DNA of 41,577 bases from Candidatus Zixiibacteriota bacterium (lineage in GTDB: Bacteria > Zixibacteria > MSB-5A5 > GN15 > FEB-12): NCBI GenBank assembly GCA_029858555.1, contig JAOUEU010000003.1, positions 1-41,577 on the forward strand, in the 5' to 3' direction. Shown piece after piece: positions 293-9,903 of this stretch (the first letter of the stretch is position 1; every line of letters starts with the position of its first letter). The notes beneath the pieces were generated by a model. That model had not been told where the DNA came from. It searched no databases and saw only the letters and a program-made list of their open reading frames with translations. The position numbers and the translations under genes were made by a program.

Positions 293-1276
293 TCAATAAA
301 GCAGGTCAAAGGAGAATATATGCTCCGAGCCTTCGTCGGCCTTGTCAGTCGAAAAAGCGTAATCAATCGTAATCGTCTTTCCGGCAAGGCGGAATAGATA
401 ACCGGTCCCGGCCGTCAGCCGGCCGTCCGAGTAGCCGCCTCTTACCGCAAACTCGGGATACAGCCTGTACTCGGCGCCGGCATGCAAAAAAGGCGACTGC
501 TTGATATTCTTGAGAATATCGGCCGCCACCAGAAGCTTTCTGTCAAAAAAGAGCGCGGCTCCTCCCAACCCGATCTCCCATGGAATTGTATCATCCTGCT
601 CCGAACTCAGCGCCGAAGTGGTATACTTGGCAAGATAATCTTCGTTGGTCCAGCGGTACTTGGCGCCTATGCGCCGGACGGTCAGGCCCACCTGAATATC
701 CTGTATCGGCACGAGATCCCGCTTCTCGCGGTCGACCAGTTCACTCAAGTAGAGCATGGCACCAAAATCGAAACTCACCGTAAACGCCGACATCTCCGCA
801 AAGGTCGCGTGCAAGTAGTTCGCTTTGATGCCGACGGCGAACAATTTCTCAAACCGTTTGGCGAAGAAGACCGAAAAATCGTGGTCGTTCTTGTTGATTT
901 CCCAGCCCAGCTCACGGCCGTTCGTATCCCGCGCCTTCAGTCCTTTGTCCCCGGCGTACAGATAGTGCACACCCAGCGCCGAATTCCCCCTCGTGGGTAC
1001 GACAAACGTGGCGTAGCCCAACTGACGGTCCAGCTTCATCAGGCGATAAGCCGTCGCGAAACGTATATTGGTGATGTTGGCCAGCCCGGCCGGATTGTAA
1101 AGCGGCCCGGCGCCGTCATCAGATACCGCCAGGTACGCTCCACCCATAGCCGCCGGACGAGCTCCGATAGGTACGTAGTAAAATGCTCCGGCCCAACCGC
1201 CGTCACCGTCCTCAGCCATCGTCGGCACGGCCCCTAGGATTATCAGCAGCACTGTCAACCAGACAAGGTATCTCAT
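293..1276 (-). CDS. PorV/PorQ family outer-membrane protein
   Basis: This is a complete 327-residue protein with a signal peptide of about 21 residues ending near TMA. The family signature follows: PIGARPAAMGGAYLAVSDD, then PLYNPAGLANI. The rest alternates short hydrophobic and polar stretches as expected of an outer-membrane beta-barrel, and it ends in aromatic strands (IFSFDLLY) with a terminal aromatic. PorV-type proteins bind the C-terminal signals of type IX secretion cargo at the outer membrane. Here the gene immediately follows (10 bp gap) a secreted protein with a FlgD-like C-terminal domain, which fits a cargo/shuttle pairing, but that is inferred from order alone. The ATG at 1274-1276 has an SD-like AAGGAG shortly upstream. 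Confidence 0.82.
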   Translation of the reverse strand: MRYLVWLTVLLIILGAVPTMAEDGDGGWAGAFYYVPIGARPAAMGGAYLAVSDDGAGPLYNPAGLANITNIRFATAYRLMKLDRQLGYATFVVPTRGNSALGVHYLYAGDKGLKARDTNGRELGWEINKNDHDFSVFFAKRFEKLFAVGIKANYLHATFAEMSAFTVSFDFGAMLYLSELVDREKRDLVPIQDIQVGLTVRRIGAKYRWTNEDYLAKYTTSALSSEQDDTIPWEIGLGGAALFFDRKLLVAADILKNIKQSPFLHAGAEYRLYPEFAVRGGYSDGRLTAGTGYLFRLAGKTITIDYAFSTDKADEGSEHIFSFDLLY

Positions 1277-1286
1277 CAGTAACTCC

Positions 1287-3935
1287 TTACGGTATCACCG
1301 CCAGCTTGCCCCAGCGGACCTCGCCCGTGGAATATTCTACTTTAAAATGATACATGCCCACCGCCACTTTTTCCGCCTGGCCGTTGTAGCCGTCCCAGGT
1401 GGGCCGGAACGAACCGACGGTGGGGTAAATCCCCTTCGGATACAACCTATTGTCTACGATGCGCCTGACCAGGTTCATGGCAAAGTCGTATATCTCGATA
1501 GTGATATTTGCGTCCTGCTCGACCGTGAAGTGGAAATCGATGCCGGCGTGCCGGGAAAAACTGAAGGGCGCCGGAAACGCATAAACAACATCCGCCGCGC
1601 TGGCCGAATCGATAAAATAAAACGTCTCGGCGTCCCCAAGACCGACAACGTTCATGCGGACAGTGCGGTCGCCGGTGCCGATCCAAAGATGATTGCCTAT
1701 GACCTCGGCCGCATACACCGGCGTCCCCGGCTCCACCAGCGTGATACCGTCGTTGTTGACCAGGGAGACGGTGTCCCACTCCGAACCGAGCTGTGCATGG
1801 TTTATCAAAAGCCCGGCATCGGTCGCGGCAAAAATCGTATCACCGTTAAAGGCGAAGTTCCAGGCAAAACCGCCGTGGTAGGCGGTCGCCCAACTGCGAA
1901 CATAGCCGACCGTGTCAGAGGTCTCCGTGTCAACCAGCGGCACCACCACTCCGACCGAGATACCCGGCGCGCCATACGTTAAGTCGTTGGGATTATTTGA
2001 ACTCCAGATGCGGGCATAGTCACCGTCAATATACTGTACTCCCAGCGCCGGAATGAAATCACCCGTAATGGCACTGCCGGTATTCGTCTTGGTATAACTT
2101 ATCACGGCGTCGGCGCCAAGTGTATCCCGGTTGATCCGGTTAATGTCGTAGCTCACACCCCGGTCCGTGGAAACGGCAAAACCCTTGGTGGAACCGACCA
2201 CGACAGTGTCACCGAGCACTTCAAATACGGTTATGGTATCGTTGGTCATGGCAGTCGCCGATGTTCCGCCCGGGTCCTTTATTTCGTGAATGAAGGTCTG
2301 GTTGCGGATTCCGTTTTCACCGTCGCGGCTGAATCTCACTCCAGCCGACGTCGCTACAAACACGGAATCGCTGAAGAAGTTGATGTCGTAGGATACCACC
2401 CCTATCTGCGATCTGTTATCGGAAAACTGCCGGTCGTCGTCGCCAATCGAGCGCATCACGCAGTACTCTCCCTGATCCGTCAGCGGCCAGTTGATGGTCC
2501 ATACGCACAGCGAGTCGAACGTGGTGTCGGCCGAGTTCAAAAACTCCTCCACTTTTACGCGCATCACCTTCGTGGAACTGGAGTCATCCTCGGGGAATAC
2601 GTAATTCCAGGACGAATCAATGGCGCCGGCCGGGTCCAGATAGAGCGTCACCAGGCCCGAATCGGTACCCAGGCGAAGGGTATCAGCCCGGGTATGTACG
2701 GCGTGGACGACATTGCGGCGATTGGCCGCGGTCGTGTCTGCATCGAATAACAGCCGGCCCCACGTCTGACCGGTGTCCGCCGACACCCATAACCCGGCCT
2801 CCTCGGCGGCCATATAGAGCCGCTCCCCGATGCTCGCAAAATCCGATATCGTGCGATCGGGGCCAATAACCTCCGTAAATAGGTCCTGAGCCTGGTAGCT
2901 CTCTCCCAGGTCGGTCGAGACGGCCAGACCTGCCGAGACTCCGCGGCTCTGATTCGCCCCGGCAAAAGCAACGCCCCTGAACACATGCACCGCCGATATA
3001 AACGGACCCGGCAGACCGTCGTTGGGACCGTTGGGATCGCCGTCTGCGAAACGCGACATGTACGGCCCACCTGTCTTAAAACCCCGCGTCACGCCCAGAT
3101 CACCAGCATAGAAGACGTAGTTATCCTCGTCGCCGGTCACATCATCGTTGAACGCCACCCGGCTGACATACTGATTGGCGTAGGCTTTTTGACGGGGAAT
3201 GGCATACACGTACTGAAAAACCCCCGCCGCTGTGCCCACCCAGACGTACAGCGAGTCCCCATGGGACGTATCCGCAGCGCACGAGAAGTACCGGTTGCTG
3301 TAAGCCGGATAAGACGGGTTGGCATAGAAATCATTCTCCAGACTCTTGCTGGCAAAAATCCGGCGCCAGTTCTGTCCCCCGTCACGCGATGCCATAAACC
3401 CGGATGCAAAGGCACTGAAGAAAAGCCAGTCGTCGTGGGCGTATACATCATCGGGGTCATAGTACCCCGCGATATCATATACCGTCCGATTAACTCCCCA
3501 CAACCCGACGCTGTCGGGATCGGTGAACCCCAGACTGGGAAAATCGACCTGCGTCCAGGTCTGGCCGTTATCGTCGGAGAGGGATACGCCGTCGGACCAG
3601 GTCTGCAAATCCCCTCCGATCGACACGTCGTGATTGGTTCCCGTCCAGATACGTCCCTTGATCGAAAATAGAGCCGAGATGTTCTCACTGACCAGGCCAT
3701 TCGACGAATTGTACAAAAGCCACGTCCGCCCGGAATCGTAGCTGAAATTCAGCCCTTCTCCCGTCGCGCACCACACCGCACCGTTATGCTCGATGATATC
3801 CACCACCGTGTTACTGGCAAAGGCCGAATCAGGGGCATCGTAGGACGAGGCCAGTTCCCCCCGCGACGGCGATGTCAGGGCCGCAAGCAATCCGGGTAAT
3901 AGCACTGCAAATTTGAACAAAGTTCTGTATGTCAC
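1287..3935 (-). CDS. secreted Asp-box (BNR-like) beta-propeller protein with C-terminal FlgD-like domain
   Basis: This 882-residue protein has a signal peptide of about 26 residues (ends PSRGE). Much of its length is built of Asp-box type repeats, for example SYDSGRTW, SDDNGQTW, SRDGGQNW, STDLGESY, SADTGQTW and STDRGVSY. These usually form a beta-propeller (sialidase/BNR or photosystem-stability-like fold). The last 90 residues or so form a FlgD Ig-like domain: ITIEIYDFAMNLVRRI, then a PTWDG turn, then VAVGMYHFKVEYSTG and WGKLAVIP. That arrangement is typical of type IX-like sorting or cell-surface domains. The start is a GTG at 3933-3935 with TGGAGT just upstream. No catalytic residues can be assigned, so enzymatic function is unknown. 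It is followed closely by two PorV/PorQ genes, probably one operon. Confidence 0.75.
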   Translation of the reverse strand: MTYRTLFKFAVLLPGLLAALTSPSRGELASSYDAPDSAFASNTVVDIIEHNGAVWCATGEGLNFSYDSGRTWLLYNSSNGLVSENISALFSIKGRIWTGTNHDVSIGGDLQTWSDGVSLSDDNGQTWTQVDFPSLGFTDPDSVGLWGVNRTVYDIAGYYDPDDVYAHDDWLFFSAFASGFMASRDGGQNWRRIFASKSLENDFYANPSYPAYSNRYFSCAADTSHGDSLYVWVGTAAGVFQYVYAIPRQKAYANQYVSRVAFNDDVTGDEDNYVFYAGDLGVTRGFKTGGPYMSRFADGDPNGPNDGLPGPFISAVHVFRGVAFAGANQSRGVSAGLAVSTDLGESYQAQDLFTEVIGPDRTISDFASIGERLYMAAEEAGLWVSADTGQTWGRLLFDADTTAANRRNVVHAVHTRADTLRLGTDSGLVTLYLDPAGAIDSSWNYVFPEDDSSSTKVMRVKVEEFLNSADTTFDSLCVWTINWPLTDQGEYCVMRSIGDDDRQFSDNRSQIGVVSYDINFFSDSVFVATSAGVRFSRDGENGIRNQTFIHEIKDPGGTSATAMTNDTITVFEVLGDTVVVGSTKGFAVSTDRGVSYDINRINRDTLGADAVISYTKTNTGSAITGDFIPALGVQYIDGDYARIWSSNNPNDLTYGAPGISVGVVVPLVDTETSDTVGYVRSWATAYHGGFAWNFAFNGDTIFAATDAGLLINHAQLGSEWDTVSLVNNDGITLVEPGTPVYAAEVIGNHLWIGTGDRTVRMNVVGLGDAETFYFIDSASAADVVYAFPAPFSFSRHAGIDFHFTVEQDANITIEIYDFAMNLVRRIVDNRLYPKGIYPTVGSFRPTWDGYNGQAEKVAVGMYHFKVEYSTGEVRWGKLAVIP

Positions 3936-4173: not shown

Positions 4174-5685
4174 TCAAGCAAGTACGTTCTTCTCGAAAGT
4201 AATGTTTCCCAGCACCGAATCCACAAAGAAGTAGCTCTCGGGGTGGAACGGTGCGTAGAAGAGATCCGCCTGCACCGGGATAACGCTCTCTCGTGCCGGC
4301 ATTCCTGAAATGCCCTCGGCCACCATGGCCACCTGCCTGCGATAGATCACAATCTCGGCCAGCGCAAAGGCTTCGCTCATACTCACGCTCACCGGCGTGA
4401 AATTGCGATCGAAGGCTTCCACCGGCGTCAATTCGAGTTGGGGATAGGCTGCCGAAATTCGCCGGGCCAACCGGTACAGGGCTTCGAAATTCCGGGTCCG
4501 AAAGGCCGGAACAACTATCCGCTCCGAGCGGTGTATCCCGCCCAACATCCGCTGCAGCTTGGCTGCAACCGGGTTGGGCATTTTCAAGGCCCAGAAAGGA
4601 AACATGCTGTCCGGGTTCTTCCCCCGGGCCGCTATCCTGTAAATTTGGTTCACGGGCAGGGGTGTCCGCTCTACGGTCTTTATCTCCTGGCAGTTTTTGC
4701 ATACGTACAGGTACGACTTCTCGTCCGGCAGATCGACGCCGCAGGTGGTGCAGCGATGAAACTCGATATCAAGCCTGCCAAACTCCACGCGGGGGCCGCC
4801 GGCCTCCTCCTCCGGCTCTTCGGTCATCTCGACCGACATGACGCTGGCTGCATTCTCGAACACCATCGACGGTGTCAGAAGCTCATCGGCGCTATCAACG
4901 TGATCGCCGTCGGAACCCGCCACGCTGCCTTCGGCGGCCTGCAACTGAAGGATCCGCGCGGAAGCGCCGTCGACCACAAAACGCCGGTAACCCTCACGAT
5001 ATGACTCCACTATGTAAAATGGAAAGAAGACCAGCGAAAAAACCGGATTGAACATCTCAGTGAGGTTGTCTCCGAACGCGGCCTGCTCTATTTCGTCTAC
5101 TGTCGCCAGGGATCGGCCGAGGTTGCTCCTGACTTTGTCCCAGGACCTGACCACGGGGAGCGAGTCAAAACCGGAGGCAACGTGTTCTTCCGAAAACGGC
5201 ACCAGCTTGACTACATCCCCGCGCACGCCCAGGGAATCGGGCACACCGTCCAGGGCCGGTCCGGCCCGTAGAGTCAGCGAATACGGAACGACGGCTATAT
5301 CGGTTTTCTCCGTCTCGGTGGTGACTTCCGACTGATATTCGGTCTCGGCCAGGATAACCCGTCGGTGGACACGATTACGCACCTTCAGCAAGAGTGAATC
5401 AATTTTCCAGAATGGGTAGTAGACTGCCTTGATCTGAAGGTCGGCATCCGTCAGCGGCAGGGATCGTTTTTTCAGATACCGGTCCAGATTGAAACGGATT
5501 TCGCGCTTGGCCAGCGTCTTGGGGGCGAGATACGCAGTCGGGCAGTCGGGCATGACCAGGCGCAGAACCGAACCGCAGTGCGAACAGGTCGTTACGAAGA
5601 AGTTCTCCTCGACTTCCAGTTCTCCACCGCAGCCGGGACAGCCTACCTCGATGTAAAAGCCGGGTTTCCTTTTCTTACTGTGCAT
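4174..5685 (-). CDS. cytosolic zinc-ribbon protein of unknown function, partner of the SPFH gene
   Basis: I do not recognise a named family for this 503-residue protein. It has no signal peptide or clear membrane segment. A zinc ribbon sits at the N-terminus (C16-P-G-C19 and C34-S-H-C37). A second follows around residues 313-335 (CTTC ... CKNC). Between them is a mixed alpha/beta region containing [18 protein letters not shown] and an acidic stretch rich in Glu. The start ATG at 5683-5685 has AGAGGGAG directly upstream and overlaps the end of the SPFH gene by 11 bp, so translation is probably coupled. Zinc ribbons in both partners suggest they act together, perhaps as a membrane-associated scaffold, but this is inference. 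Confidence 0.6.
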
Positions 5686-6799
5686 CTCCCTCTATTCTCT
5701 TGCCGCAGGATCCGCAGAATTTGGAGCCTGGAATAATCTCTTCCGAACAGTGCGGGCAAACCGGTTTTGCATCGAGCTTGTACCCGCAGTGCAGGCAGAA
5801 GGCGGCCTCGGTGGGCAGTTCCTTGTGGCACGACGGGCAGGTGTTCTGAGTTACCATCTGGTGGCCGCATCGGTAACAAAACCGCGACTGTTCGGGAGTA
5901 TCGGTATGACATTTCGGACAGGTGACGGTGCTGACCGATTCACGCTTCAATTCCGTCTGCTCAGGCGAGAAAACGCGAGAAAGCATCCCCGGGGCCAGAA
6001 GACCGACACCGGCGGCAACGCCGGCGCCGGAAGTAGCCGCGGTACCGGCGCTGGTCGACCCCATGCCCTGGGCCATCTCAAACTTCAAAAACTTGTCCAG
6101 GTCGCCCACGGCCTCCATACCGGAGCGCTTGTCGATGAGTCTGGCGACATCCTCGGGAGGCGTGACCGAAGAAATATAAAAATCCACCAGTTCGAGTCCG
6201 TACTTGTCGAACTCCACCTTGACGGTCTGCTTGAACTCCTCAGCCAACTCCGTGTAGATGGCCGGCAACTCCAGAATTGTATCGAGCTTTTCACCCAGCA
6301 TGTCGTTCATACGGGCCACAATGACATCGCGCAGATAGTCCTGAATATCCTGCGTGGTGTAACGCGCCTGGCGGCCGACAATCGAGTTGAGAAACAGCGC
6401 CGGGTTTGCGATGCGCATCGTGAAAGCACCGTGCCCTCGAAGCCGAATCAGCCCCAGCCTGCTGTCCTGGAACGTGACGGGGTATTTGGTCCCCCACTTG
6501 AGATCCGTGAAGACCTTGAGGTTGACAAAGTAGACTTCGGCCCGGAAAGGTGATTTGAACCCATAAGGGAAGGCCAGAAGTCTGGTCAGGATAGGTATGT
6601 TCAAAGTCGAAATGGTGTGGCGCCCGGTCGTAAAAGAGTCACAGGCATGACCGTCCTTGAAGAACATGGCCGTCTGGCTGTCCCGGACGATGAGTTGAGC
6701 ACCCCACTTGAAATCGGCCGATCCCTCCTGCGGGATCCGATGAATCATCTCTTCCCCGGCGGGGTCGAGCCACTCGATTACCTCAATTAATAGTGACAT
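5675..6799 (-). CDS. SPFH/band 7 domain protein with three C-terminal zinc ribbons (YdjI-like)
   Basis: This is a 374-residue protein. Residues of about 20-220 match the SPFH/band 7 type found in YdjI and so-called virion core-like proteins: [20 protein letters not shown] at the start, then [13 protein letters not shown] and [15 protein letters not shown] Gly/Ala-rich linker ([16 protein letters not shown]) follows. The tail holds three zinc ribbons in a row: CPKC/CYRC, CPSC/CLHC and CPHC/CGSC. Family members lack a signal peptide and are thought to associate with membranes or stress-linked scaffolds; nothing in this sequence assigns an enzyme activity. The ATG at 6797-6799 has ACGGAG about 8 bases upstream. 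It is the first gene of a two-gene unit with the zinc-ribbon protein downstream. Confidence 0.8.
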
Positions 6800-6954: not shown

Positions 6955-6983
6955 TTGACGTTTCCCGCGGGCGGTGATATACT
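6955..6983 (+). promoter_or_regulatory. sigma70-type promoter for the cytochrome-PKD gene
   Basis: TTGACG (6955-6960) and TATACT (6978-6983) are separated by exactly 17 bp, each matching five of six consensus bases. A TG one base before the -10 makes it an extended -10 promoter. Transcription would begin near 6990, giving a leader of under 30 bases before the ATG at 7018. Confidence 0.7.
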
Positions 6984-7017: not shown

Positions 7018-8862
7018 ATGATATACCGTAAAGCCGTTCCACTTTTCTTTGTCGGCATGCTGGCGCTTCTGCTGACTTTTCCCGGCTGTGATGACCTTAT
7101 CACAGAAACCAATAATATCACGGTTTACGATACTACTTTGGGTCTGGCCTGTTTCGACTGCCATAGTGATGAAGATAACCGGCTGATACGGCCGAAAGCC
7201 CAGTGGGCGAATTCCGCCCATGCCTCCGATTCGCTTCTCGACATCCTTCACGACCTGAACGGCAGCAATTATACCGTCAACGACTGCGGCCCGGAGTGTC
7301 ACAGCCATGAAGGGTTTATCCGCGAGTTTGACAGTCTGCCTCTGGGGGCGATCCAGCATTACAATGTCATCGGCTGCTTCACTTGCCATATGCCGCATAC
7401 CGGCAATTATGGTACCTGGAGTGACTCCACTCTGCGTGCTCTCGGCGAGTTTGTCTATCTGGCGAACGACTCCACCTTCGTCATGGGCAAATCGAACATG
7501 TGCGTTCACTGCCATCAGGCTGTAAACCCGGCGCCGGCCGCCGGTATTACCAGTGATGTCCTTCTAACAGCTACTTTCGGCCCTCATTATAGCGGCCAGG
7601 CGGACGTGCTGTCCGGCAAGGGCGGCTTTCGCTTCGCCGACAGCGTCGTGGCGTCCTCGCACCGGTCGGTGGCGGATTTGAACGGTTGCTTGCGCTGTCA
7701 CTATCTCAATGGACAGGGTTACTCCTTCGGCGAGCATACTTTCCGACTGGAGCACATTGACGGTGTCGACACTACGCAATATCTGGCTGCCTGCCTCGGC
7801 TCGGGCTGTCATGCATTGCTGGAAAACTTCCATGACGTGATCGGATCCGGATTGGGCTATTATCGTCTCGACTCGATAGTCTCCCTGGCCGACAGTCTGG
7901 AAACACTGCTGAAGGACCGGGCCTTCCTCGACCCCGCGGACCCTGCCGGAATGCGCCTTATGGCCGATTCGGTCATCCCGGCGGATGCGGCTCGTATTCT
8001 GTACAACTACCTGCTATACAAGGGCGACGGCTCCCGTGGGATTCACAATCCCAGATTCGTCCAAGCCCTTCTTACCGAGTCGGTAGTCCGGTTTGATTCC
8101 CTGCCGCCGGCCGCCGCCTTCAGCGCGTCCGTGACCTCCGGTTGCGCGCCCCTGACGGTCGATTTCACGGACGAATCGAAGGGTAATGTCGCCACCTGGA
8201 ACTGGACCTTCGGCGACCTGACCGGCACCTCGGATCAACCTAACCCCACTTACACATATGACACGGGCGGTATCTATACTTGCAGCCTCATCGTAGCCGG
8301 CCCGTCCGGGGCCGCTGATTCGCTGGTCAGGGCAAGTTACATCCAGGTCTACTCAACAATAGCGCTTTTCACCGCCAGCCCGCTTTCCGGCTGCTCCACC
8401 CTGGTGGTGGACTTCCAGGATCTCTCGCCCAGTGACAGTATACTGACCTGGGAGTGGGATTTCGGTGACGGCGTCACGTCGATGGAACAGAGCCCGCAGC
8501 ACAACTACGACAGCACCGGCATTTTTGATGTCCGGCTTATCGTTTCGGACTCCTGCGGCTGGGACACCCTGACCTATCCGGGCTACATCACCATCGCTGA
8601 TGCCGTCCCCGTGGCCGGGTTCTTCGCTTCCGATACCCTCGGCGCACCCGGCCTGACGGTTTTCTTTACCGATACCTCGAGCGGCCTGATCACATCATGG
8701 CAGTGGGATTTTGGTGACCCCAATTCGGACGACAACAGCTCCACCGAACAGAATCCCCAGCATACTTACGACGAGGTGGGCACCTATACCGTGGTGTTGA
8801 CTGTCAAAAACGAATGCGGCCAGGGCGTGAGGTTCGAGACGGATCTCATCAAAATTGAATGA
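7018..8862 (+). CDS. multiheme c-type cytochrome lipoprotein with three PKD domains
   Basis: This 614-residue protein starts with a lipoprotein signal (lipobox-like TFPGC, Cys24). The N-terminal half carries heme-attachment motifs. CFDCH (45-49), CFTCH (120-124), CVHCH (162-166) and CLRCH (224-228) are standard. CGPECH (90-95, CX3CH) and CLGSGCH (259-265, CX4CH) are non-standard. From about residue 362 come three PKD domains with the WNWTFGD, WEWDFGD and WQWDFGD hallmarks and NPxHTYDxxGxYTV-type ends. PKD domains usually act as surface spacers or binding modules. A surface electron-transfer role is likely but the redox partner is unknown. No cytochrome maturation genes are nearby. It stands alone, with its own promoter and terminator. 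Confidence 0.85.
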   Translation: MIYRKAVPLFFVGMLALLLTFPGCDDLITETNNITVYDTTLGLACFDCHSDEDNRLIRPKAQWANSAHASDSLLDILHDLNGSNYTVNDCGPECHSHEGFIREFDSLPLGAIQHYNVIGCFTCHMPHTGNYGTWSDSTLRALGEFVYLANDSTFVMGKSNMCVHCHQAVNPAPAAGITSDVLLTATFGPHYSGQADVLSGKGGFRFADSVVASSHRSVADLNGCLRCHYLNGQGYSFGEHTFRLEHIDGVDTTQYLAACLGSGCHALLENFHDVIGSGLGYYRLDSIVSLADSLETLLKDRAFLDPADPAGMRLMADSVIPADAARILYNYLLYKGDGSRGIHNPRFVQALLTESVVRFDSLPPAAAFSASVTSGCAPLTVDFTDESKGNVATWNWTFGDLTGTSDQPNPTYTYDTGGIYTCSLIVAGPSGAADSLVRASYIQVYSTIALFTASPLSGCSTLVVDFQDLSPSDSILTWEWDFGDGVTSMEQSPQHNYDSTGIFDVRLIVSDSCGWDTLTYPGYITIADAVPVAGFFASDTLGAPGLTVFFTDTSSGLITSWQWDFGDPNSDDNSSTEQNPQHTYDEVGTYTVVLTVKNECGQGVRFETDLIKIE

Positions 8863-8886: not shown

Positions 8887-8917
8887 AAAACCGCCGACCC
8901 TGACAGTCGGCGGTTTT
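8887..8917. terminator. bidirectional intrinsic terminator
   Basis: A perfect 12-bp stem (AAAACCGCCGAC, 8887-8898, with GTCGGCGGTTTT, 8906-8917) encloses a 7-base loop. T-runs lie on both sides. It separates the convergent cytochrome and etfA genes and can serve both. Confidence 0.88.
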
Positions 8918-8940: not shown

Positions 8941-9903
8941 TTACGTCGCAAGTTCCTGTTTGAACTTCCTGGTCAAGGCCGGAACGATTTCAAAAGCGTC
9001 GCCGACAATGCCGTAATTGGCGATATTGAATATCGGCGCATCTTTGTCTTTGTTCACCGCCACAATCGTTCCCGAGGTTCGCATACCCACCAGATGCTGA
9101 ATCGCCCCGGAAATACCCACGGCTACATACAGCTTGGGGTTCACGGTCTTCCCGGTCTGCCCCACCTGGTGCGAGTAAGGAATCCAGCCAGCGTCGACGA
9201 TAGCTCGCGACGCGCCGAAGGCCGCCCCCAGAACGTCAGCCAATTCCCGCACTATGGGCAGGTGCTCCGGCCCCTTCATTCCGCGCCCGGCTGACACAAT
9301 GATGTCGGCCTCGGTCAGACTGACCGCGCCCGTCGCCTCGATCTTTAACTCCTTTACGACCATTTTTGATTGCAGCAGAGACGCGTCGACCGTTTCAACT
9401 ACAACCCGTCCGTCGCCGTCTTTCGACTCGGGATATATCTTGGGTCGCACCGTCACCAGAAACGGCTTGTCGCTGTTCCTGACCACGTTCGAGATTACCG
9501 AGCCGCCGTAGTGCGACCTGGCGACTACTACATCGTCGCCGTTGCGACTGACATTACTCACGTCCGAAGCCATGGGCGCGCCGTTCCTGGCCGCCAGGCG
9601 ACTGACGAGTGACTTGCCATAGAAGGTCGCTGGTCCGAGCACGAGATCCGGAGTGTGCTTCGATATCAGCGACGACAGAACGTTCACATAGATTTCATCG
9701 TTGAAGTATTTCAACTCGTGACTGGATACCGCCAGAACCTGTCCGCCGCCGCGCTGGGCCAGTTCACCGGCCAACGCCTCGGCGTTTTCGGCCAGTACGA
9801 CCGTAGTCACCTCTCCCCCCAGAGATTTGGCGACTTCAATCAACTCAAATGACGCCGGGACCAGCTTTCCGTCTTTTTGCAGGGCGATGATAAGCGTCTT
9901 CAT
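8941..9903 (-). CDS. etfA: electron transfer flavoprotein, alpha subunit
   Basis: This 320-residue protein has the usual length of EtfA. The N-terminal alpha/beta domain has the LGPATFYGKSLVSRLAAR pattern. The C-terminal FAD domain holds the family signature: VSAGRGMKGPEHL, then SHQVGQTGKTVNPKLYVAVG, then ISGAIQHLVGM and the IVAVNKDKDAPIFNIANYG end. EtfA with EtfB shuttles electrons from acyl-CoA or other dehydrogenases to the quinone pool through a membrane oxidoreductase. The partner etfB is normally adjacent, but the next gene upstream is a dus gene and no etfB is in the window. The gene has its own promoter, so it appears to be expressed as a single-gene unit. The start is the ATG at 9901-9903. 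Confidence 0.93.
   Translation of the reverse strand: MKTLIIALQKDGKLVPASFELIEVAKSLGGEVTTVVLAENAEALAGELAQRGGGQVLAVSSHELKYFNDEIYVNVLSSLISKHTPDLVLGPATFYGKSLVSRLAARNGAPMASDVSNVSRNGDDVVVARSHYGGSVISNVVRNSDKPFLVTVRPKIYPESKDGDGRVVVETVDASLLQSKMVVKELKIEATGAVSLTEADIIVSAGRGMKGPEHLPIVRELADVLGAAFGASRAIVDAGWIPYSHQVGQTGKTVNPKLYVAVGISGAIQHLVGMRTSGTIVAVNKDKDAPIFNIANYGIVGDAFEIVPALTRKFKQELAT

What the first reader, a model, noticed from the sequence alone, without database searches (positions are those of the whole stretch)
7018..8862. Multiheme cytochrome fused to three PKD domains, with two non-standard heme motifs
The sequence shows four CXXCH sites plus CX3CH (CGPECH) and CX4CH (CLGSGCH) in one lipoprotein that ends in three PKD domains. 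Standard maturation recognises CXXCH; CX3CH and CX4CH hemes are known but uncommon. The PKD tail suggests a surface-exposed electron carrier that also binds a polymer or mineral. It stands alone, with a strong extended -10 promoter.
Basis: partly seen in the sequence, partly recalled or inferred. Interest (0 to 1): 0.6.

Follow-up and report, generated by a model that had tools for sequence, protein, structure and literature searches.

The report
Surface hexaheme cytochrome with stretched heme motifs
The gene encodes a surface-anchored electron-carrier protein that very probably holds six hemes, not four, and its many relatives suggest that bacteria of this group can attach heme to cysteine pairs spaced one to six residues apart, where the textbook spacing is two.

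Summary
The ORF, its six motifs and its three PKD domains are real. The genome is a Candidatus Zixiibacteriota MAG. All six heme sites are conserved in about 104 non-redundant relatives (C and CH at every site). Only the cysteine spacing varies: site 2 is CX3CH in most of this gene's clade and CX2CH elsewhere; site 6 runs CX1, CX2, CX3, CX4, CX5 and CX6. In 89 of 103 modules no cysteine is left over beyond the 12 heme cysteines and the lipobox cysteine. Six hemes are therefore well supported. The fold matches OcwA (6I5B), a cell-surface terminal reductase related to NrfA, by sequence profile (E 7.5e-13) and by structure (Foldseek first hit). The sister clade sits where MtrC would in an MtrA-barrel-cytochrome operon, including one copy in this genome. 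The PKD form is instead a single-gene unit at its own conserved locus (etfA downstream, propeller and PorV-like genes divergent upstream). I read it as a second outer-surface electron-transfer lipoprotein with a PKD stalk. Surface location, redox function and PKD role are inferred. CX3CH and CX4CH are known; CX5CH and CX6CH at an orthologous heme site, in bacteria with Cys-type CcmE and no CcmH, are the newer part.

The parts
6955..6983 (+). promoter-like site TTGACG-17 nt-TATACT with TG before the -10
   Evidence: consensus match 10 of 12; not tested functionally
7018..8862 (+). hexaheme lipoprotein with three PKD domains (614 aa)
7018..7089 (+). signal peptide with lipobox; cysteine C24 would be the lipidated residue
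   Evidence: C24 conserved in nearly all relatives
7150..7164 (+). heme site 1, CFDCH (CX2CH; CX3CH in 8 relatives)
7285..7302 (+). heme site 2, CGPECH (CX3CH); aligns with OcwA heme 5, the open active-site-like heme
7375..7389 (+). heme site 3, CFTCH
   Evidence: CX2CH in all complete relatives
7501..7515 (+). heme site 4, CVHCH
   Evidence: CX2CH in all relatives
7585..7587 (+). His190 of GPHxxxQADxL; aligns with the distal His-His of OcwA heme 5
   Evidence: H in 103 of 104 relatives; alignment; active-site pair from PMC6703420
7687..7701 (+). heme site 5, CLRCH
   Evidence: CX2CH in all relatives
7792..7812 (+). heme site 6, CLGSGCH (CX4CH); spacing 1-6 in relatives
   Evidence: at least 20 changes on the tree
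7867..8097 (+). C-terminal three-helix bundle of the cytochrome module (residues 284-300, 322-337, 345-360), as in OcwA and NrfA
   Evidence: AlphaFold2 models; Foldseek
8101..8859 (+). three PKD domains
   Evidence: Pfam; beta-sandwiches with block pLDDT 90-97
8887..8917 (.). bidirectional terminator-like stem between this gene and etfA
8941..9903 (-). etfA, conserved convergent neighbour (22 of 26 orthologous loci; the loci without it are mostly contig ends)
   Evidence: Pfam; synteny
1287..3935 (-). ~880-aa propeller-like protein with FlgD Ig-like domain, conserved divergent neighbour (21 of 26 loci)
   Evidence: Pfam; synteny
293..1276 (-). PorV/PorQ family outer-membrane protein, conserved neighbour
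   Evidence: NCBIfam; synteny

Best explanation
A lipid-anchored outer-surface c-type cytochrome with six covalently bound hemes in an OcwA/NrfA-like fold, carried with a stalk of three PKD domains. Shown by sequence and comparison: six conserved heme sites, two with non-standard cysteine spacing; a conserved lipobox; an OcwA-type fold; a sister branch encoded next to an MtrA-like 11-heme cytochrome and a porin-like barrel, including one copy in this genome. Inferred: electrons leave the periplasm through the MtrA-barrel conduit, pass to the paralogous hexaheme at the surface and then to this protein, which hands them on to an extracellular acceptor, much as OmcA works beside MtrC; the PKD domains are spacers or contacts that position the heme head. 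Inferred: all six hemes are attached by the genome's single CcmF, fed by a cysteine-type CcmE and without CcmH, a System I* machinery that accepts cysteine spacings of one to six residues.
For: Six sites, C and CH conserved throughout. No spare cysteine in 89 of 103 modules. Spacing at site 6 changed at least 20 times on the tree while the site was never lost. Six conserved or near-conserved non-motif histidines, H68, H127, H190, ~H215, H240 and H343, one per heme. OcwA is the best relative by profile (7.5e-13) and by fold (4.8e-5, probability 1.00). The MtrA-barrel-hexaheme operon occurs in most sister-branch loci and at G000:C321. The barrel is in 71 of 130 phylum genomes, among them most genomes with the PKD-type locus. 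One CcmC and one CcmF in the genome; CcmE with CPSKY in 16 of 16 and CcmH absent in 19 of 20. System I* definition and CPSKY motif: PMC3601427.
Against: No heme count, redox or localisation data. The residue after the lipobox cysteine is acidic in 71 of 81 relatives, which in E. coli (Asp) would favour inner-membrane retention; whether that rule holds here is unknown. Some PKD-type genomes (G014, G015, G035, G054, G056) show no barrel, several of them incomplete, so dependence on the conduit is not universal. TM-score to OcwA is only about 0.5. The AlphaFold models carry no hemes.
Confidence: 0.62

Rival explanations
1. It is a surface or periplasmic reductase of small molecules (nitrite, hydroxylamine, sulfite or similar), with heme 2 as an open, catalytic heme and His190 in the distal pocket.
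For: Heme 2 aligns with OcwA heme 5 and NrfA heme 1; nearly invariant H190 aligns with the OcwA distal His-His. OcwA itself reduces nitrite slowly (PMC6703420).
Against: No CXXCK catalytic motif; six extra histidines suffice for six bis-His hemes; the sister branch is encoded with a trans-outer-membrane conduit, which fits a relay better.
Confidence: 0.2
2. Only the four CXXCH sites carry heme and the two odd motifs are decayed sites.
For: Standard System I acts on CXXCH, and altered spacing can give aberrant products (PMC3601427).
Against: No decay seen: C and CH kept in every complete relative at both sites; the spacing goes back to CX2CH and on to CX4-6CH without loss; CX3CH and CX4CH are reported to bind heme covalently (PMC4245776).
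Confidence: 0.04
3. The PKD domains are the functional end: they bind an extracellular polymer or surface, and the cytochrome serves a local redox step there.
For: PKD domains of collagenases are the nearest solved relatives of the tail; the neighbours include a secreted propeller protein and PorV-like genes.
Against: The PKD tail is absent in the bare relatives at the same locus (L080, L084-L088) and varies from two to three domains, so it is not essential to the family; nothing shows binding.
Confidence: 0.14

Closest known systems
OcwA, nonaheme cell-surface terminal reductase of Thermincola potens (PDB 6I5B, PMC6703420)
   Same: Best profile and fold match; hemes 2-6 align with OcwA hemes 5-9; three-helix bundle; conserved GxHN; His aligned with the distal pair of the open heme 5
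   Different: Six hemes, not nine; lipobox and PKD tail; Gram-negative type envelope; non-CX2CH spacing at two sites
NrfA pentaheme nitrite reductase
   Same: C-terminal fold and SxGxHN motif
   Different: No CXXCK catalytic motif; one heme more; its sister branch is linked to an outer-membrane conduit
MtrC/OmcA/UndA decaheme outer-membrane cytochromes
   Same: The sister branch holds the gene position of MtrC next to MtrA-like and barrel genes
   Different: No MtrC-family chain appears in the PDB profile searches; six hemes; different fold class
Pcc outer-membrane cytochromes with atypical motifs (Geobacter, Ignavibacterium album; PMC4245776)
   Same: Porin-cytochrome clusters with CX3-15CH motifs in outer-membrane cytochromes; Ignavibacteria hold members of the present family
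   Different: There the atypical motifs were listed protein by protein; here one orthologous site shows the whole series CX1-CX6, and the MtrA-type partner also varies
System I* cytochrome c maturation (Desulfovibrio, archaea; PMC3601427)
   Same: CcmE with CPSKY, no CcmH in 19 of 20 genomes tested
   Different: Tolerance of cysteine spacing was not described for it in the papers I could read

Membership tests
OcwA/NrfA fold superfamily of multiheme cytochromes | significant profile match over the pentaheme module | tested here: met
   6i5b 7.5e-13, 6qvm 4.9e-8, NrfA 5e-8
OcwA/NrfA fold superfamily of multiheme cytochromes | fold match, C-terminal three-helix bundle | tested here: met
   Foldseek 6i5b first, E 4.8e-5; helices
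OcwA sensu stricto | nine hemes, two penta-coordinated with distal His-His | tested here: not met
   six heme sites; coordination cannot be read without hemes
NrfA nitrite reductase | CXXCK catalytic heme | tested here: not met
   all six sites end in CH in about 104 relatives
NrfA nitrite reductase | nitrite reduction to ammonium | not testable with these tools
   needs enzyme assay
MtrC/OmcA family | sequence match to MtrC/OmcA chains or curated model | tested here: not met
   Pfam MtrC-MtrF_II-IV below cut-off for the window protein (21.7 of 30 bits); no MtrC chain or 63
porin-cytochrome (MtrCAB-like) outer-membrane partner | gene beside periplasmic MHC and barrel | tested here: not met
   not for the window gene; met for its paralog G000:C321 and most of the sister branch
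porin-cytochrome (MtrCAB-like) outer-membrane partner | surface location and electron transfer through the barrel | not testable with these tools
   needs protease shaving and mutants
System I* maturation | CcmE with Cys in place of His | tested here: met
   CPSKY in 16 of 16, own genome included
System I* maturation | CcmH often missing | tested here: met
   no PF03918 in G000 and 18 of 19 relatives
PKD domain proteins | Pfam PKD above cut-off | tested here: met
   154.8 bits against 27

The most novel reading that the evidence does not exclude
One orthologous heme site in one protein family accepts every cysteine spacing from one to six residues, in bacteria whose heme-attachment machinery lacks CcmH. 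CcmH would thus be the part that enforces the CX2CH spacing, and System I* would be spacing-tolerant. In line with this, all 8 genomes with CcmH among 31 checked have CX2CH at the site, while 14 of the 23 without it have CX4CH or CX5CH (Fisher p 0.0035, not corrected for shared descent).
Probability: 0.3. Interest if true: 0.72.

Novelty: new variant of a known kind. Interest (0 to 1): 0.52.

Why it matters
PMC4245776 states that it remained to be determined whether motifs with more than four residues between the cysteines bind heme. Here CX5CH and CX6CH stand at a site where the relatives have CX2CH or CX4CH, so the question can be tested with matched natural sequences in one protein. Motif counters that look for CXXCH alone undercount hemes in this phylum: four instead of six here. 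It also names a likely terminal cytochrome of Zixibacteria porin-cytochrome conduits and ties it to the OcwA fold of Gram-positive surface reductases.

Tried and rejected
IMG/VR scan for relatives: none. Foldseek with the full-length model: mainly Ig-like and PKD hits, because the tail dominates, so the heme module was modelled alone. MtrC membership: rejected (see membership test). A dedicated second heme lyase for the odd motifs: the window genome has a single CcmF, and G036 and G037 with CX5CH also show only two PF01578 hits each, so it is not needed; some other genomes (G018, G058) have a second CcmF-like gene. CcmH rule: G136 has a His-type CcmE, no CcmH hit and CX4CH, and G127/G128 have weak CcmH-like hits with CX1CH, so the correlation is not clean, and the genomes share descent. 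Papers on PKD plus multiheme: none in the library. Goddard 2010 was not held. Model coordinates could not be read, so heme placement was not attempted.

Full report
Observation. The ORF at 7018-8862 is as described: 614 aa, lipobox cysteine C24, motifs CFDCH, CGPECH, CFTCH, CVHCH, CLRCH and CLGSGCH, then three PKD domains. It is flanked by a convergent etfA with a bidirectional terminator-like stem between them, and by divergent genes upstream, so it is a single-gene unit.

Family. The own genome (95% complete, 403 contigs) holds one cytochrome paralog, G000:C321:9600-10622, 36% identical and without PKD. Of 133 genomes of the phylum 78 hold relatives. Titles of matched records name the group as Candidatus Zixiibacteriota; further members lie in MAGs labelled Eisenbacteria, Krumholzibacteriia, Ignavibacteria, Acidobacteria and Proteobacteria. 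Three architectures occur: PKD-tailed, bare, and C-terminal module of longer proteins with 14 (or, in Acidobacteria, 9) motifs.

Heme sites. In 53 aligned full proteins all six C..CH sites are invariant. Over about 106 modules the spacing at sites 3, 4 and 5 is always two. Site 1 is two (96) or three (8). Site 2 is two (84), three (21) or four (1). Site 6 is one (2), two (35), three (1), four (63), five (3) or six (2). On a tree made without those columns, site 6 needs at least 20 changes, site 2 five and site 1 four; every CX3CH at site 2 lies in one clade of 26 that includes the window gene. Of 103 modules 89 have no cysteine beyond the 12 heme cysteines and the lipobox cysteine. Therefore the odd motifs are most likely working heme sites whose loop length drifts, and the heme count is six.

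Context of the two clades. The sister branch lies in an operon of an 11-heme DmsE/MtrA-like cytochrome, a ~520-aa barrel-like protein and the hexaheme lipoprotein, in this genome and in most loci. The barrel assignment rests on sequence pattern and gene position; no Pfam or NCBIfam model hits it. The window's clade sits at another locus conserved across the order: ~880-aa propeller/FlgD-Ig protein and PorV/PorQ-type genes divergent upstream, etfA and often dus downstream. The PKD tail has two or three domains in 18 members and is absent in the basal members of the clade.

Fold. The family profile matches OcwA (6i5b, 7.5e-13), then the undecaheme cytochrome of Carboxydothermus (6qvm) and NrfA. 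The AlphaFold2 model of the heme module (pLDDT 84, pTM 0.85) returns the same two first in Foldseek. Hemes 2-6 align with OcwA hemes 5-9. OcwA heme 5 is penta-coordinated with a distal His380-His381 pair (PMC6703420). With a 29-residue numbering offset, which is my inference, that pair is the HH in the alignment that faces the nearly invariant His190 of GPHxxxQADxL. So CX3CH falls on the heme that is catalytic in NrfA. Whether heme 2 is open here is unknown; the family has six conserved or near-conserved non-motif histidines, enough for six bis-His hemes.

Maturation. The genome has one CcmC and one CcmF. CcmE carries CPSKY in 16 of 16 relatives that have it, and CcmH is missing in 19 of 20 and in nearly all of 130 phylum genomes. 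This is System I* as described in PMC3601427, which also says System I recognises little more than CXXCH and that altered spacing gives aberrant products. Among 31 further genomes (some of them Zixibacteria), all 8 with CcmH have CX2CH at site 6, and 14 of 23 without it have CX4 or CX5. This is a lead, not a proof: lineages are few, MAGs are incomplete, and exceptions exist (see tried and rejected).

Mechanism. Shown: anatomy, conservation, fold class, locus, machinery. Inferred: outer-surface location, electron flow from the MtrA-barrel conduit to this protein, PKD as stalk. Porin-cytochrome operons in a Zixibacteria genome were reported before (PMC7005843), and atypical CX3-15CH motifs in Pcc outer-membrane cytochromes too (PMC4245776). 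The same paper says that no atypical motif had been found in Mtr or periplasmic Pcc cytochromes and that heme binding of CX>4CH was open. Here the last heme of the MtrA-like partner is CX4CH in 37, CX1CH in 13 and CX2CH in 3 of 53, while the other 527 motifs are all CX2CH.

Verdict. Real, six hemes, a new variant of a known kind. The single protein is moderately interesting; the spacing series at one orthologous site is the part worth a bench test.

Noticed in passing
L036:12215-13150 and 52 further MtrA-like partners: The last (11th) heme motif of the MtrA-like periplasmic cytochrome is CX4CH, CX1CH or CX2CH, all others CX2CH: a second spacing-variable terminal heme site.
   Followed up: partly
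L042, L050, L052, L054, L062-L068, L089: The hexaheme module is fused behind an N-terminal eight-motif part to give 14-heme lipoproteins in the MtrA-barrel operon; this arises in several places of the tree.
   Followed up: partly
G000:C26:14.7-18 kb (L096, L097): ccmC-ccmE-ccmF of System I* type (CPSKY CcmE, no CcmH found in the genome).
   Followed up: yes
window 7087-7107 and relatives: The residue after the lipobox cysteine is D or E in 71 of 81 relatives, followed by a loosely conserved [RE]-[KL]-[VI]-T pattern; possibly an export signal of its own.
   Followed up: no
window 4174-6799: A zinc-ribbon protein and an SPFH protein are inserted between the propeller gene and the cytochrome in 7-8 of 26 loci.
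   Followed up: no
L153 and L162 (Ignavibacteria): Tandem hexaheme paralogs behind a 14-heme and a 7-heme cytochrome, apparently of the Pcc type known from Ignavibacterium album.
   Followed up: no
L070 and L095: Contracted CXCH motif at heme site 6.
   Followed up: no
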